Shown here in pieces: positions 6,333 to 11,794 of a stretch of 64,000 nt of DNA. Below the pieces are notes generated by a model. The model ran no database searches. It was given only the letters and a program-made list of their open reading frames with translations, and was not told where the DNA came from. The DNA is from Veillonella sp. VA142 (GTDB lineage: Bacteria; Bacillota; Negativicutes; Veillonellales; Veillonellaceae), in assembly GCF_003992135.1 (NCBI RefSeq), contig NZ_RQVN01000002.1, positions 1 to 64,000 of the forward strand. The letters run 5' to 3'. Positions within the stretch are counted from its first letter, which is position 1, and every line of letters begins with the position of its first letter. Made by a program: the position numbers and the translations under genes.

Positions 6333-6366
6333 AGCAACAGGATGTGAAAATTCTGTTGCTTTTTTG
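6333..6366 (+). terminator. Rho-independent terminator after the glycosyltransferase
   Basis: AGCAACAG (6333-6340) pairs with CTGTTGCT (6353-6360), followed by TTTTTT. It closes the 2961-6321 gene cluster. Confidence 0.85.
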
Positions 6367-6435
6367 TGTGCTGGTTGAGATGTTTGAGTTAAAGGATTGA
6401 AGTTGAAACTATGTGGGGAGATTTTTATTTATGTA

Positions 6436-6480
6436 TTGACTTTTGCACCCAAAAGTATATAATTTTGGGTGCAAGGAGGT
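6436..6480 (+). promoter_or_regulatory. AbiE promoter with perfect 12-bp inverted-repeat operator
   Basis: TTGACT (6436-6441) and TATAAT (6458-6463) are spaced 16 nt. Overlapping them is an exact inverted repeat, TTGCACCCAAAA (6443-6454) and TTTTGGGTGCAA (6463-6474), with 8 bp between the arms. AAGGAGGT (6473-6480) follows directly. AbiEi antitoxins of the streptococcal AbiE system are known to repress their own promoter by binding inverted repeats; this layout fits that mechanism. Confidence 0.75.
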
Positions 6481-6486
6481 GTATAG

Positions 6487-7092
6487 ATGATGACTATAGC
6501 AAATCAAATAGAAGAGAATATGACAGAAAACTTAGGAAAAATTTTTTCTATACATGATTTCTATCATTTAGGAACAAAAAATACCGTCAAATCAGCCCTA
6601 TACCGCTTACATGAAGAAAATAAGATTATAAGGCTTATAGATGGCTTGTATACAAAGCCTAAATATAGTCAAGTTTTAAAAGAATATATTTATCCAGATG
6701 CTAGTGTAGTGGCAGATAAATTGGCAGAAAAATTTTCTTGGACTATAGCACCTGCTGGGGAAACTGCTTTGAACTATACAGGACTGTCTACACAGGTTCC
6801 TAATGAGTATATTTATATTACTGATGGCGCTTATAGAGAGTATATGTATAGGGGGAAAAAAATAGTTTTTAAACGCACCACCAATAGACATATAACAACT
6901 TACTCAAAAGAATTATCTATTTTAATACAAGCGATAAAGGCTTTGGGAAAAAATAAAATAGGAGACAATGAGATACAAAAACTTGCTATATTTGCTAAAG
7001 GTGTGAAAGAAGATTTAAAGAAAGATGTTGTCAAAATTCCCTTTTGGATGCAAGAAATTTTTACAAAAATACAGGAGCTTAACTATGAGTAA
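6487..7092 (+). CDS. AbiEi-type antitoxin (type IV toxin-antitoxin)
   Basis: The 201-residue protein has an N-terminal winged-helix region (residues about 15-60: HDFYHLGTKNTVKSALYRL) followed by a DUF6088/AbiEi-like C-terminal domain, the architecture of antitoxins that both repress their promoter and counter the AbiEii toxin. It begins at ATG 6487, with a second ATG at 6490, after a perfect Shine-Dalgarno. Its last codons overlap the toxin start by 8 bp, typical of this pair. The gene is notably AT-rich compared with the flanking biosynthetic genes, suggesting horizontal acquisition. Function is inferred from architecture and partner. Confidence 0.8.
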   Translation: MMTIANQIEENMTENLGKIFSIHDFYHLGTKNTVKSALYRLHEENKIIRLIDGLYTKPKYSQVLKEYIYPDASVVADKLAEKFSWTIAPAGETALNYTGLSTQVPNEYIYITDGAYREYMYRGKKIVFKRTTNRHITTYSKELSILIQAIKALGKNKIGDNEIQKLAIFAKGVKEDLKKDVVKIPFWMQEIFTKIQELNYE

Positions 7093-8092
7093 ATTATTAG
7101 AAATCTCAAATGAAGAGCTAGAACTTGTTATTACTAGCACATCAGATAAACTTAATTTATCTAAAGCTATTGTAGAAAAAGATTTATGGGTTTGCATGAT
7201 TTTGAACTATTTATTTAGTGAGTTCAAATATAAAGATGCCATCGTTTTCAAAGGTGGTACAAGTTTATCCAAAGTTTATAAACTAATCGAACGATTTTCT
7301 GAAGATATTGATCTTGCATTGGATTGGGAGATATTAGGCTATGGTGCAAGAGAACCGTATGAAGATAGAAGTAATACTAAACAAATAAAATTTAATGATA
7401 CACTAAATAATGATACAAAAGTATTTCTTAAATGTGAGTTACTTCCTATTTTACAAAATGATTTTAATAAGATACTAAAAGATAAGTCATGGAATTTTTA
7501 TATTGATGAAGTGGATGGACAGACTATCTGCTTTGACTATCCTAAAAATTATACTGATAGTTCTATTTTACAAGTTATACGATTAGAAATTGGGTGCTTA
7601 GCAGAACCAATTCCAGTGAATCATCGAATGATTACTACTTATATTGAAGATGTGTATCCTGAGATATTTAATGAAAATATAGAGGTTATTGCAGTAGATA
7701 GTTTACGTACTTTTTTTGAAAAATTAACAATACTTCATAGAGAGGCCAATAGAGTAAATGGAAATTACCCTATAAGATATTCAAGACATTTCTATGATGT
7801 GTATAAAATGCTATTAACTGATATTAAAGAGAAAAGTTTTGAAAACATTAAGTTACTAAAGGCGGTAATTGATTTTAAGAAAAAATTTTATGCAAGTAAT
7901 TGGGCAAAATATGATGAAATTTTAGAGGGTAAATTAAAGTTAATTCCAGCTGAAGAAGGTTTAACAGTTTTTTCAGAAGATTATGATAGTATGAAAAAAA
8001 TGCTGTTTGGTGAAAAAATACCTTTTCATAGAATAATAAAGACTTTACAAGAATATGAGCATGAGTTAAATGAGGTTATAAAAAGTCAATAG
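7085..8092 (+). CDS. AbiEii/AbiGii-type nucleotidyltransferase toxin
   Basis: A 335-residue DUF1814-type nucleotidyltransferase. The family motif is clear: FKGGTSLSK near residue 56 (G-G-T-S/G-x-L) and SEDIDLAL near 72 (metal-binding D-x-D), with a basic C-terminal region. AbiEii toxins give abortive phage infection and plasmid stabilisation; related MenA-type enzymes add nucleotides to tRNA 3' ends. ATG 7085 overlaps the antitoxin stop and aligns with the start of the conserved region; an upstream in-frame ATG at 7025 lies inside the antitoxin gene and is not favoured. No frame damage is visible, so the pair may be active. Confidence 0.85.
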   Translation: MSKLLEISNEELELVITSTSDKLNLSKAIVEKDLWVCMILNYLFSEFKYKDAIVFKGGTSLSKVYKLIERFSEDIDLALDWEILGYGAREPYEDRSNTKQIKFNDTLNNDTKVFLKCELLPILQNDFNKILKDKSWNFYIDEVDGQTICFDYPKNYTDSSILQVIRLEIGCLAEPIPVNHRMITTYIEDVYPEIFNENIEVIAVDSLRTFFEKLTILHREANRVNGNYPIRYSRHFYDVYKMLLTDIKEKSFENIKLLKAVIDFKKKFYASNWAKYDEILEGKLKLIPAEEGLTVFSEDYDSMKKMLFGEKIPFHRIIKTLQEYEHELNEVIKSQ

Positions 8093-8117
8093 CTCAATCT
8101 TACATATAGACGTAATA

Positions 8118-8144
8118 GACGGTAGTGAAATACTATCGTCTTTT
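8118..8144 (+). terminator. Terminator after the AbiE pair
   Basis: GACGGTAGT (8118-8126) pairs with ACTATCGTC (8132-8140) through a 5-nt loop, with one G.U pair, followed by TTTT. Confidence 0.7.
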
Positions 8145-8153
8145 GTATTTGGA

Positions 8154-8192
8154 AAGCCCTGTTGCAGTTCACATATTGCAACAGGGCTTTTG
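8154..8192. terminator. Strong second terminator
   Basis: A perfect 13-bp stem (8154-8166 with 8177-8189, AAGCCCTGTTGCA) is followed by TT; on the opposite strand an A-rich flank precedes it. Two terminators in tandem separate the AbiE pair from the decayed locus. The following 8193-8377 is very AT-rich with no gene I can support. Confidence 0.75.
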
Positions 8193-8379
8193 CTATCCCT
8201 CCTCCTAAAAAATATATGATAGAATCCCCAAAATATTATAAATCCAAAATATATTAAAAAACTAATACATTATAAAACTAAATATAGTATGGAAGCGTAA
8301 CTATCGGGACTTTTGTCATTTCAAAAATTCACTTTTCTATATACTAAGAGAGGCAAAAGAATTTTAAAATCTCTATTGC

Positions 8380-8414
8380 CAATGACAAAATATGTCATTG
8401 CTGGTGGGTATACT
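8380..8414 (+). promoter_or_regulatory. Palindrome plus -10 box, copy 1 (before the HEPN pseudogene)
   Basis: CAATGACA and TGTCATTG flank AAATA (8380-8400), a perfect 8-bp inverted repeat. Eleven nt after the inner TGTCA comes TATACT (8409-8414), a -10-like box. The same 22-nt block, beginning ATTGCCAATGACA, recurs at 10,101 with the same spacing to CATACT. No -35 hexamer is recognisable, because the palindrome occupies its place. That fits an activator site or an overlapping repressor site. Confidence 0.55.
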
Positions 8415-8468
8415 GTACTCATACCTAGTGTTTTACAAGTGGTATAAGACCACGGAAAGGAAATGATT

Positions 8469-10094
8469 ATGAATTTTTGGAAAGTGTTAATGGAATCAAT
8501 TACAGAGAAGCAACGACAAAAAGGACAGAATGTACGGATGGGGACACAATGGTTTGATGTATCTCAAGACACATCAAAGGTAGTAGTGCCTATGGTACAT
8601 CCTAGTCAGCTTGGAGAGGGGCTTGTGAAAGAGCCTACGGTATCTATGCCAGTAGAACTAGCACAAGATGATGTGATGGCTCAAATGCAAGTATCTGTAT
8701 AAAGTCAAGAGGTGGTTCAAGCGCATCTTGACGGTGCAGATATAACTCATTTATCTGCACAAACTAAGGATTTAGTGGAATCAGAGTCAGATCAAAGCAA
8801 CACGATTTCAGTACTATCTGGAGCGGTGCACTGTGCAGTGGAAGCCTTTGCACAATTTGGACGAGCAGATATGTTAGCTCAATTAGTGAAGGAACATTCA
8901 GTACATAAAGAGATTGAATACTTAGTAGGCTCCTTAGGCGACTTCTCAGAGGCAGCCCATTTGTGTAAAGGGGATGATATGGATTTTGCCGTTCATGCCA
9001 TTCGTCAAGGTATTAAAGATTGTGAATCCATCACAGCCAATAGCGAGGTGGATACAGCATTCTTACAGTACTTACCAACCTTAAAAGGAAGCTTAGGGGA
9101 CTTATTAGATGCTACTGTTCATAGTCAAGAATTACAATTAGCTATGATTCAATGGTGCTTACAATGTGGTTTATACCAACAGTCGGTGACCTTAAGTACA
9201 GAATGGGTGCCAACAATCTTATTCAATAAAGGAGTTTACTACACCGATCGTACTGACATGAAAGTGTTATTCAAAAAAGAAATCGAAGCGATGCAACGGA
9301 CTTGGAAAGAGTGTTTTGTCATTACTTACCGTGATTATGCAGGGAATAAAGCAGTCAGTGTGGCTGGTGGTGATACAGTAGGAGCAGAACTATCTGTGAT
9401 TCGTGATGAATTGCGTGGAGCAATCAACAAAAACCAAGTGACAAAAGCCTTTGAGAAGTTCTCCTATAACAAGGAAAAAATTGTAAAATTCATCCATGAT
9501 TTGTACCCAGCCTATTTACATGTACAGCAAAATATACGCTCTGTTGTGGATGTCATGTATTTTCAAGCACAATACTCAGAGATTGAAGGATACTTACGTG
9601 AATACTATGAAATCCAATGCACTAGCATCAGTTAACATAAACAATATTATCAATTCTTACAACAAAGTGCATCCGATTACGGCACTTTCATCCGTCAATT
9701 CTTACAAGCACCGACAGCAGAATTAGTAGAACGATTTGATTTGTACAAAGGTGTTTACTTTGATGAAGAGGATGAGGAATCTTTGGAGTCTGTAGCGGAG
9801 GAGATGTTCCAAAAACAACGTATTAAGCTAATCCGTGATTGCCAAGCTATGCTTGCTTACGGCAGTGCAAAAACAGATTTACCACAATTAGAAGCGCTAC
9901 AATTCTTGGTAGAATTCCATTACATTCGCCATCTTCGCAACAATATTAACCATGCAGCAGATAAAACTTTGGTTATCACGAGTGATATGGTGAAAGAAGC
10001 AGTGTCTACCTTGGTATCGTCTTTACAAGCTGGACAGTGGCTCGGCAATGTAACAGTGGAAGAAGAATTACAAAAAAATAGAAATATTATATAA
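8469..10094 (+). pseudogene. TM1812/Csx2-like HEPN ribonuclease gene broken by two in-frame stops
   Basis: One reading frame of 541 codons runs from ATG 8469 (GGAAAGGAA upstream) to TAA at 10,092, interrupted only by TAA at 8700 and TAA at 9633; no frameshift is needed. The middle and C-terminal parts look like the helical region of TM1812-family CRISPR ancillary proteins: AVEAFAQFGRADMLAQLVKE, then DFSEAAHLCK, then QSVTLSTEWVPTILFNKGVYY, and finally HLRNNINHA, a HEPN Arg-x4-His motif of RNases such as Csm6/Csx1. The first ~90 residues do not resemble the ligand-sensing CARF domain that normally precedes this region, so the N-terminus may be replaced or lost. The family call is by eye; another HEPN family is possible. 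Confidence 0.5.
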
Positions 10095-10102
10095 AAAAGT
10101 AT

Positions 10103-10140
10103 TGCCAATGACAAAATATGTCACTTTCATATGGCATACT
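10103..10140 (+). promoter_or_regulatory. Palindrome plus -10 box, copy 2 (before the regulator operon)
   Basis: CAATGACA-AAATA-TGTCA at 10,106-10,123 repeats the site at 8380, with the right arm shortened to TGTCACTT. CATACT (10,135-10,140) follows at the same 11-nt distance. It would drive the 45-residue ORF, the 52-residue ORF and the WYL regulator. Confidence 0.55.
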
Positions 10141-10237
10141 AATAGAATAGAGCACATAGTTCTAATACTTGGGGACATAGAAGAGAGAGAACATGTGATT
10201 TCTAGTTAGAATATTGTTAATCATTTAAGGAGGATGT

Positions 10238-10375
10238 ATGGAACAAAAAGAAACAGTATTGTCTGCTGTGGAACAGGCAAAGGAGAAAATGAATGCACTG
10301 CTAGAGGATGTGAGCCGCTTTGAAAGCCATCAATTCGATGCAAAATGTCAGTCTATTGTAGAACAAATTGCATAA
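10238..10375 (+). CDS. Small protein of unknown function, 45 residues
   Basis: AAGGAGGA at 10,227-10,234 precedes ATG 10,238, and the frame runs 45 codons to TAA. The product (MEQKETVLSAVEQAKEKM...) is rich in Glu, Gln and Ala and looks like one or two amphipathic helices. I do not recognise it. The good ribosome site and the regulated promoter 98 bp upstream make it a plausible real gene, and it is followed by its own terminator hairpin. It belongs by position to the WYL/HEPN locus. Confidence 0.45.
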   Translation: MEQKETVLSAVEQAKEKMNALLEDVSRFESHQFDAKCQSIVEQIA

Positions 10376-10401
10376 CGTATAGCAGGTAATCCCTGACAGA
10401 G

Positions 10402-10450
10402 AAAGCCACCATCTTGCCTATGACATTTCATGGTGAGACGGTGGCTTTAT
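10402..10450 (+). terminator. Hairpin after the 45-residue ORF
   Basis: AAAGCCACC (10,402-10,410) and GGTGGCTTT (10,440-10,448) form a stem with a long, partly paired loop. The T run is short (TTTAT), so it may be an attenuator rather than a full terminator. Confidence 0.45.
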
Positions 10451-10551
10451 GTATACATAAAAAACTATTTACTTAGTTGAGAGAGTTTTTTATAATTAAA
10501 GTAATTGGTACTTCGAGAGTAAATACTTTCATAAGAGAAAGGACAAAAGAG

Positions 10552-10710
10552 ATGAAACGATACATGGTCAAGTTTCACTATCCTAATAGCACGACGGTAC
10601 ATACTGCCTATGAAAGTGCTCATTCCCGTAGCGAAGCAGCGAACAAGGTGAAAGCTCGTGAAGCAGGATGTGGTCGTATTGTAAAAATTATTGCTACTGT
10701 GGAGCGATAA
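10552..10710 (+). CDS. Small basic protein of unknown function, 52 residues
   Basis: ATG 10,552 follows GAAAGGACAAAAGAG. The product MKRYMVKFHYPNSTTVH... is basic, with an alternating beta-like N-terminal half and a central helix (SRSEAANKVKAREAG), ending IVKIIATVER. It reads like a small alpha/beta fold, perhaps nucleic-acid binding. An in-frame ATG at 10,477 exists but has no ribosome site. The stop lies 1 bp before the WYL regulator start, implying cotranscription. It is intact although both larger neighbours are broken. Confidence 0.55.
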   Translation: MKRYMVKFHYPNSTTVHTAYESAHSRSEAANKVKAREAGCGRIVKIIATVER

Positions 10711-10711
10711 G

Positions 10712-11630
10712 ATGGAGGACAAGATAGACAAGACGCAGCAGATTTTGACGGATGCAACGTCGCCTATTACAAGGAGAAGTGCTGTGTAAATCAGAACTGG
10801 CTAAAGAGTTCGGTATTAATGAACGGTCCGTACAACGAGATATAGATGATTTACGAGCCTATTTACATGATGAAAGTACCCTTTGTGGGAATGAACAGCT
10901 TATCGTGTATGATCAAAAACGGAAGGGCTATGTCCTTAGCCATGGAGAATCAGATTGCTTATCTGTCAACGAACTAGTGGCCATTGCTAAAGTGATGTAA
11001 GATAGTCGTTCCCTATTACGAGATGATATGGGACGTATATTGAATAAATTATTGAAAACATTCTTTCCACATGAAGTGGTAAAGCTGGTAGAAAATCTCA
11101 TTCGTAATGAATTGCACCATTATGTAGAATTACGACATTAGAGAAATGTGTTGCCATTGTTGCAAGATTTATCGAGAGCCATACAAGAGCAACGATACAT
11201 TACGATTTCCTATGAAAAAAGTACTAACAAAGAAGTGGTAACACGTAAATTATCGCCATTGGGCATTTGTTTTTCGGAGTACTATTTCTATTTAACTGCT
11301 TATATGGATCGGGAAGAACGAAGCAAAATTCCGAAGGAATTACAGGACTTTCCAACGATTTATCGCTTAGATCGTATCCATAGCTTGATCGTCGAAGAGG
11401 AGCATTACCAAGTGCCATCCTATACATCACGGTACCAAGAAGCAGAGTTTCGTAAACGAATCCAGTTTATGTACGGCGGTAGACTACAACAAGTGACCTT
11501 TACCTATGTGGGACACGATATCGATGCTATCCTAGATAGATTGCCAACAGCCACCATTACCTGGTATGAAGAAGAAACACATACCTACCATATCCGTGCA
11601 GAAGTGTATGGAACGGGTATTTGGCGATAG
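10712..11630 (+). pseudogene. WYL-domain transcriptional regulator, inactivated
   Basis: The gene starts at ATG 10,712 (MEDKIDKTQQIL), one base after the previous stop. A frameshift near 10,750 leads into QRRLLQGEVLCKSELAKEF, then GINERSVQRDIDDLRAYL, a DeoR/YafY-like winged helix. In-frame TAA (10,998) and TAG (11,139) interrupt the linker and the start of the WYL domain; the domain continues with ISYEKSTNKEVVTRKLSPLG and FYLTAYMDRE. The final stop after GTGIWR lies about 50 residues short of the usual C-terminus. WYL proteins often control CRISPR and other defence genes. Three lesions plus truncation make it non-functional unless stops are read through. Confidence 0.75.
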
Positions 11631-11643
11631 AGTTGACTTAAAT

Positions 11644-11692
11644 AATACCTATGAAGTTATTACTAGCATAATGACTTTATAGGTATTTTATT
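11644..11692 (+). terminator. Terminator after the WYL pseudogene
   Basis: AATACCTAT (11,644-11,652) pairs with ATAGGTATT (11,679-11,687), with further pairing of AAGTTATT/AATGACTT inside, followed by TTATT. The next 100 bp are AT-rich with only the promoter of the next gene. Confidence 0.65.
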
Positions 11693-11794
11693 ATCAAATT
11701 ACATTGATAATTTTTAAAATAATACGTTTATAAATAATTTTTTGAAGAAATAAAAAAATAATTATTAAAAAAATGTTAATGGCATTCGCTCTAT

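What the first reader, a model, noticed from the sequence alone, without database searches (positions are those of the whole stretch)
8469..10094. HEPN/TM1812-like gene with two in-frame stops and no frameshift
A 541-codon frame is interrupted only by TAA codons at 8700 and 9633; sequence on either side of each stop reads on in the same frame with good protein character, and the Arg-x4-His HEPN motif (HLRNNINHA) after the second stop is intact. Ordinary pseudogene decay usually also produces indels. Possible explanations are recent nonsense mutation, selection for off-switching, or stop-codon read-through. The missing CARF-like N-terminus is also odd.
Basis: partly seen in the sequence, partly recalled or inferred. 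Interest (0 to 1): 0.62.

Follow-up and report, generated by a model that had tools for sequence, protein, structure and literature searches.

The report
Decayed CARF-less Csx1-type HEPN operon
The gene with two internal stop codons is a dead copy of a ribonuclease gene; two related species carry it intact, and the partner and regulator genes beside it are also broken here, so this is ordinary gene decay and not read-through, although the intact form is a little-known variant that lacks the usual sensor domain.

Summary
In detail: frame 8469-10094 has in-frame TAA codons at 8700 and 9633 and an intact RNNINH motif. The explanation is ordinary pseudogene decay. Two congeneric genomes (the Veillonella sp. 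VA139 and 3891 contigs) carry the gene as one uninterrupted 576-578 aa ORF, 95% and 87% identical. Each stop is one base from a sense codon (Glu, Tyr) in both relatives. The whole operon is dying while the adjacent AbiEi/AbiEii pair and flanking genes are intact. TAA is the commonest terminator in the window, so recoding is very unlikely. The missing CARF is real but not damage: the intact relatives lack it too, whereas 26 of 28 distant homologous frames show the CARF DxTGG motif. The intact operon (CARF-less Csx1-type HEPN protein, helical partner, 52-aa ORF, WYL regulator, two identical palindromes) also occurs in a genome without RAMP genes. It is best read as a defence- or toxin-type variant detached from type III CRISPR; function untested.

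The parts
8469..10094 (+). pseudogene of a CARF-less Csx1-type HEPN protein; single ORF of 576-578 aa in two relatives
8614..8615 (+). point of a 105-bp in-frame deletion relative to both intact relatives (within the variable N-terminal linker)
8700..8702 (+). premature TAA (Glu codon in both relatives)
9633..9635 (+). premature TAA (Tyr codon in both relatives)
9936..9953 (+). HEPN R-x4-H motif RNNINH, unchanged but downstream of both stops
8383..8397 (.). palindrome TGACAAAATATGTCA upstream of the HEPN gene; candidate WYL operator
10109..10123 (.). second copy of the palindrome, upstream of the partner gene
10238..10375 (+). remnant (45 codons) of the 306-aa helical partner gene; 783-bp internal in-frame deletion at about 10339/10340, CGAT at both ends of the deleted stretch
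10552..10710 (+). 52-aa ORF, intact and conserved in both relatives; no family match
10712..11630 (+). pseudogene of the WYL-domain regulator: one-base frameshift near 10750, TAA 10998-11000, TAG 11139-11141, stop at 11628 and loss of the 3' end
6487..7092 (+). AbiEi antitoxin (DUF6088), intact
7085..8092 (+). AbiEii nucleotidyltransferase toxin, intact
6366..11788 (.). accessory segment (defence hotspot) absent from relative G005, where the glycosyltransferase and acyltransferase genes are 167 bp apart

Best explanation
It is a pseudogene in a decaying accessory defence-type operon. Shown: the intact form, in two congeneric genomes, is HEPN protein - 306-aa partner - 52-aa ORF - WYL regulator, and in this genome the HEPN, partner and WYL genes are all disrupted while their neighbours are intact. 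Inferred: the ancestral HEPN protein was a ribonuclease acting on RNA during phage infection or stress, the WYL protein controlled the operon through the two TGACAAAATATGTCA palindromes, and the operon was lost here because it was costly or no longer selected. The stops end translation before the catalytic motif, so no active enzyme is expected.
For: Intact single-ORF orthologues without stops in G001 and G004. Each stop is one base from the relatives' sense codon. There is a 105-bp deletion in the same gene, a 783-bp deletion in the partner gene, and a frameshift, two internal stops and a lost 3' end in the WYL gene. On the window's branch replacement plus nonsense changes are raised in HEPN (17:17 against 9:28 on the G001 branch, p=0.03) and WYL (10:30 against 2:37, p=0.025), but not significantly in four flanking genes (20:85 against 13:92, p=0.26). 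TAA is the commonest terminator in the window. No second copy in the own genome. HEPN family assignment.
Against: The reading frame between lesions is well conserved and the HEPN branch ratio (0.23) is far below 1, so inactivation must be recent; this alone would also fit a gene still under some constraint. No second isolate of the same species was available to confirm the stops. Branch counts are small.
Confidence: 0.95

Rival explanations
1. The two TAA codons are read through (or recoded) and a full-length HEPN protein is still made.
For: Frame and motif are intact apart from the stops; the frame between lesions is conserved.
Against: TAA ends 24 of 48 long ORFs in the window. The relatives have sense codons at both places. 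The partner and regulator genes are destroyed as well, with a deletion and a frameshift.
Confidence: 0.01
2. Reversible off-switching (phase variation) or selected silencing of a toxic nuclease.
For: HEPN ribonucleases are often toxic (established knowledge), so loss of the regulator may favour loss of the effector.
Against: The lesions are scattered point changes and deletions, not slippage at repeats or inversion; the large deletion in the partner gene and the lost 3' end of the WYL gene cannot simply revert. One-way loss under selection is not excluded and is compatible with the best explanation.
Confidence: 0.03
3. Sequencing or assembly error in a draft genome (65 contigs).
For: Draft assembly; no reads were examined.
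Against: Several premature stops, a frameshift and two deletions within 3 kb confined to one operon, while the neighbouring long ORFs are intact.
Confidence: 0.01

Closest known systems
Csx1/Csm6 family CARF-HEPN ribonucleases (PADLOC CARF2--CARF_HEPN, PDLC01829; TM1812-like)
   Same: C-terminal about 400 residues align over profile 191-549 of 551; R-x4-H motif at the same place near the C-terminus
   Different: No CARF part: profile matches begin after it and the DxTGG motif is absent, in the intact relatives too; a variable 150-residue N-terminus replaces it; the operon is not beside cas genes, and this genome and G004 have no RAMP matches
WYL regulators of defence islands (BrxR, CapW)
   Same: HTH plus WYL domain, beside an effector operon, with palindromes upstream; CapW binds palindromes overlapping the -10 site of its operon (PMC9122588)
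   Different: The regulator is the last gene of the operon here; binding not tested; in the window the gene is dead
AbiE (AbiEi/AbiEii) type IV toxin-antitoxin
   Same: Shares the same hotspot in the window and in G001
   Different: Separate intact system; in G004 only a different AbiEi-like ORF was seen at this place

Membership tests
Csx1/Csm6 (CARF-HEPN) ribonuclease | HEPN domain with R-x4-6-H motif | tested here: met
   RNNINH in window, G001, G004; PADLOC match E 8e-41
Csx1/Csm6 (CARF-HEPN) ribonuclease | N-terminal CARF domain that binds cyclic oligoadenylate | tested here: not met
   Profile coverage begins at about position 160-190; no DxTGG motif in intact relatives, present in 26 of 28 homologous frames
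Csx1/Csm6 (CARF-HEPN) ribonuclease | Association with type III CRISPR-Cas | tested here: not met
   No RAMP (PF03787) match in G000 or G004; G001 has type III loci on other contigs than the operon
Pseudogene | Disabling lesions relative to intact orthologues | tested here: met
Pseudogene | Relaxed constraint on the lineage | tested here: met
   Raised replacement:synonymous ratio on the window branch for HEPN and WYL, p about 0.03 each, small counts
Stop-codon read-through gene | Stops conserved in orthologues | tested here: not met
   Sense codons in both relatives
BrxR/CapW-type WYL repressor | HTH plus WYL domain | tested here: met
   PF13280 over its cut-off; HTH_11 slightly below its cut-off, 23.9 of 25 bits
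BrxR/CapW-type WYL repressor | Binds a palindrome in the operon promoter | not testable with these tools
   Two identical palindromes conserved in three genomes; binding untested

The most novel reading that the evidence does not exclude
The intact operon in the relatives is a stand-alone defence or toxin-type system in which a Csx1-derived HEPN ribonuclease has lost its CARF sensor and its type III link and is instead controlled by the helical partner protein and a WYL regulator.
Probability: 0.4. Interest if true: 0.45.

Novelty: new variant of a known kind. Interest (0 to 1): 0.22.

Why it matters
The stops themselves are ordinary. The useful by-product is the intact operon in related species: a Csx1-type HEPN protein without the cyclic-oligoadenylate sensor, in an operon with a WYL regulator, also in a genome without RAMP genes. 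If functional, it shows how a CRISPR ancillary nuclease can be reused outside CRISPR, and it would be directly testable.

Tried and rejected
Structure prediction of the intact HEPN protein and partner from two-sequence alignments gave mean pLDDT 32 and 43, too poor to search, so no fold search was run. Pfam and NCBIfam give nothing significant for the HEPN protein; PADLOC does. The PDB sequence search gave nothing credible. Separate genes with their own ribosome sites: rejected, relatives have one ORF. Read-through and off-switching: rejected. A third copy of the 15-bp palindrome on contig C9 lies near men genes; its flanks do not resemble those of the operon copies, and it was not pursued. 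Literature: no paper in the held library matched the query for a Csx1 protein 'lacking the CARF'; this does not show that none exists.

Full report
Observation. The frame 8469-10094 exists as described: 541 codons, TAA at 8700-8702 and 9633-9635, terminal TAA at 10092-10094, and the motif HLRNNINHA after the second stop. The conceptual product matches PADLOC CARF_HEPN/Csx1 models (best PDLC01829, E 8e-41) over profile positions 191-549 of 551. The fragment before the second stop and the fragment after it match neighbouring parts of the same models. Pfam and NCBIfam give no significant family.

Orthologues. Among six genomes of the genus, two others carry the gene. In G001 it is a single 576-aa ORF and in G004 a single 578-aa ORF, 95% and 87% identical, without stops. 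A scan of public genomes found the partner gene only in Veillonella sp. VA139 and Veillonella sp. 3891, whose contig lengths equal those of G001 and G004. Where the window has TAA both relatives have Glu and Tyr codons, one base away.

An alignment of the region shows a 105-bp in-frame deletion in the HEPN gene's N-terminal linker. The next gene, 306 aa in the relatives, is reduced to 45 codons by a 783-bp deletion with CGAT at both ends of the deleted stretch. The WYL-domain gene has a one-base frameshift near 10750, stops at 10998 and 11139, and a stop at 11628 after which the sequence is unrelated to the relatives. The 52-aa ORF between them is intact. The AbiEi/AbiEii genes upstream and the flanking genes are intact. 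On the window's branch, replacement plus nonsense changes against synonymous changes are 17:17 for HEPN (9:28 on the G001 branch) and 10:30 for WYL (2:37), p about 0.03 each, while four flanking genes show no significant difference. The HEPN ratio is still well below 1, so the loss is recent. This is ordinary decay of an operon.

Read-through. TAA ends 24 of 48 ORFs of 150 codons or more in the window, the stops are not conserved, and the partner and regulator are gone. I give read-through about 1%.

The missing CARF. The intact relatives start with a variable region of about 150 residues with no profile match and no CARF DxTGG motif. Of 28 distant homologous frames from the class (one weak extra hit left aside), 26 have that motif, in most some 55-60 residues before the shared core, and nearly all have an RNxxxH motif near the C-terminus. 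In G021, for example, the homologue is a CARF-HEPN protein in a type III CRISPR locus. So a CARF-less branch arose before the decay. This genome and G004 have no RAMP matches, while G001 has type III loci on other contigs. The intact operon therefore does not seem to need a type III system in the same genome.

Setting. In relative G005 the glycosyltransferase and acyltransferase genes that flank the segment are 167 bp apart, with nothing between them; similarity stops at about 6365 and resumes at about 11789. The segment 6366-11788 is thus an accessory island holding AbiE and the dead operon. G004 has a different AbiEi-like ORF at this place.

Mechanism (inferred). The palindrome TGACAAAATATGTCA stands upstream of the HEPN gene and again upstream of the partner gene, conserved in three genomes. 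WYL regulators such as CapW bind palindromes in the promoters of immune operons (PMC9122588). I propose that the WYL protein controlled HEPN and partner expression, and that HEPN cleaved RNA. The role of the partner (predicted all-helical at low confidence; a roughly 24%-identical relative lies in accessory gene clusters of G001 and G004, near dynamin-like GTPases in G004; the GTPase naming is by eye) is unknown; neutraliser or sensor are the obvious options. None of this was tested.

Verdict. The flagged feature is a pseudogene and scores low. The intact operon in the relatives is a modestly interesting variant of a known kind.

Noticed in passing
window 10552-10710: 52-aa ORF (MKRYMVKFHYPNSTT...) intact and nearly identical in three genomes although the genes on both sides are dead; no family match.
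   Followed up: partly
L025 6109-7101, L026 5219-6211: 330-aa relatives (about 24% identity) of the operon's partner protein, in accessory gene clusters; in L026 the cluster includes dynamin-like GTPases (by eye).
   Followed up: partly
G000 contig C9:52125-52139 (L012 7126): Third exact copy of TGACAAAATATGTCA upstream of a methyltransferase-like ORF; flanks differ from the operon copies.
   Followed up: partly
L042, L044: G001 and G005 carry type III-like CRISPR loci at the same place near a purine nucleoside phosphorylase-like gene, which the own genome apparently lacks (no RAMP match).
   Followed up: no
window 6366-11788: Variable defence hotspot between a glycosyltransferase and an acyltransferase gene, with AbiE plus the operon, a different AbiEi-like ORF plus the operon, or nothing in different relatives.
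   Followed up: partly
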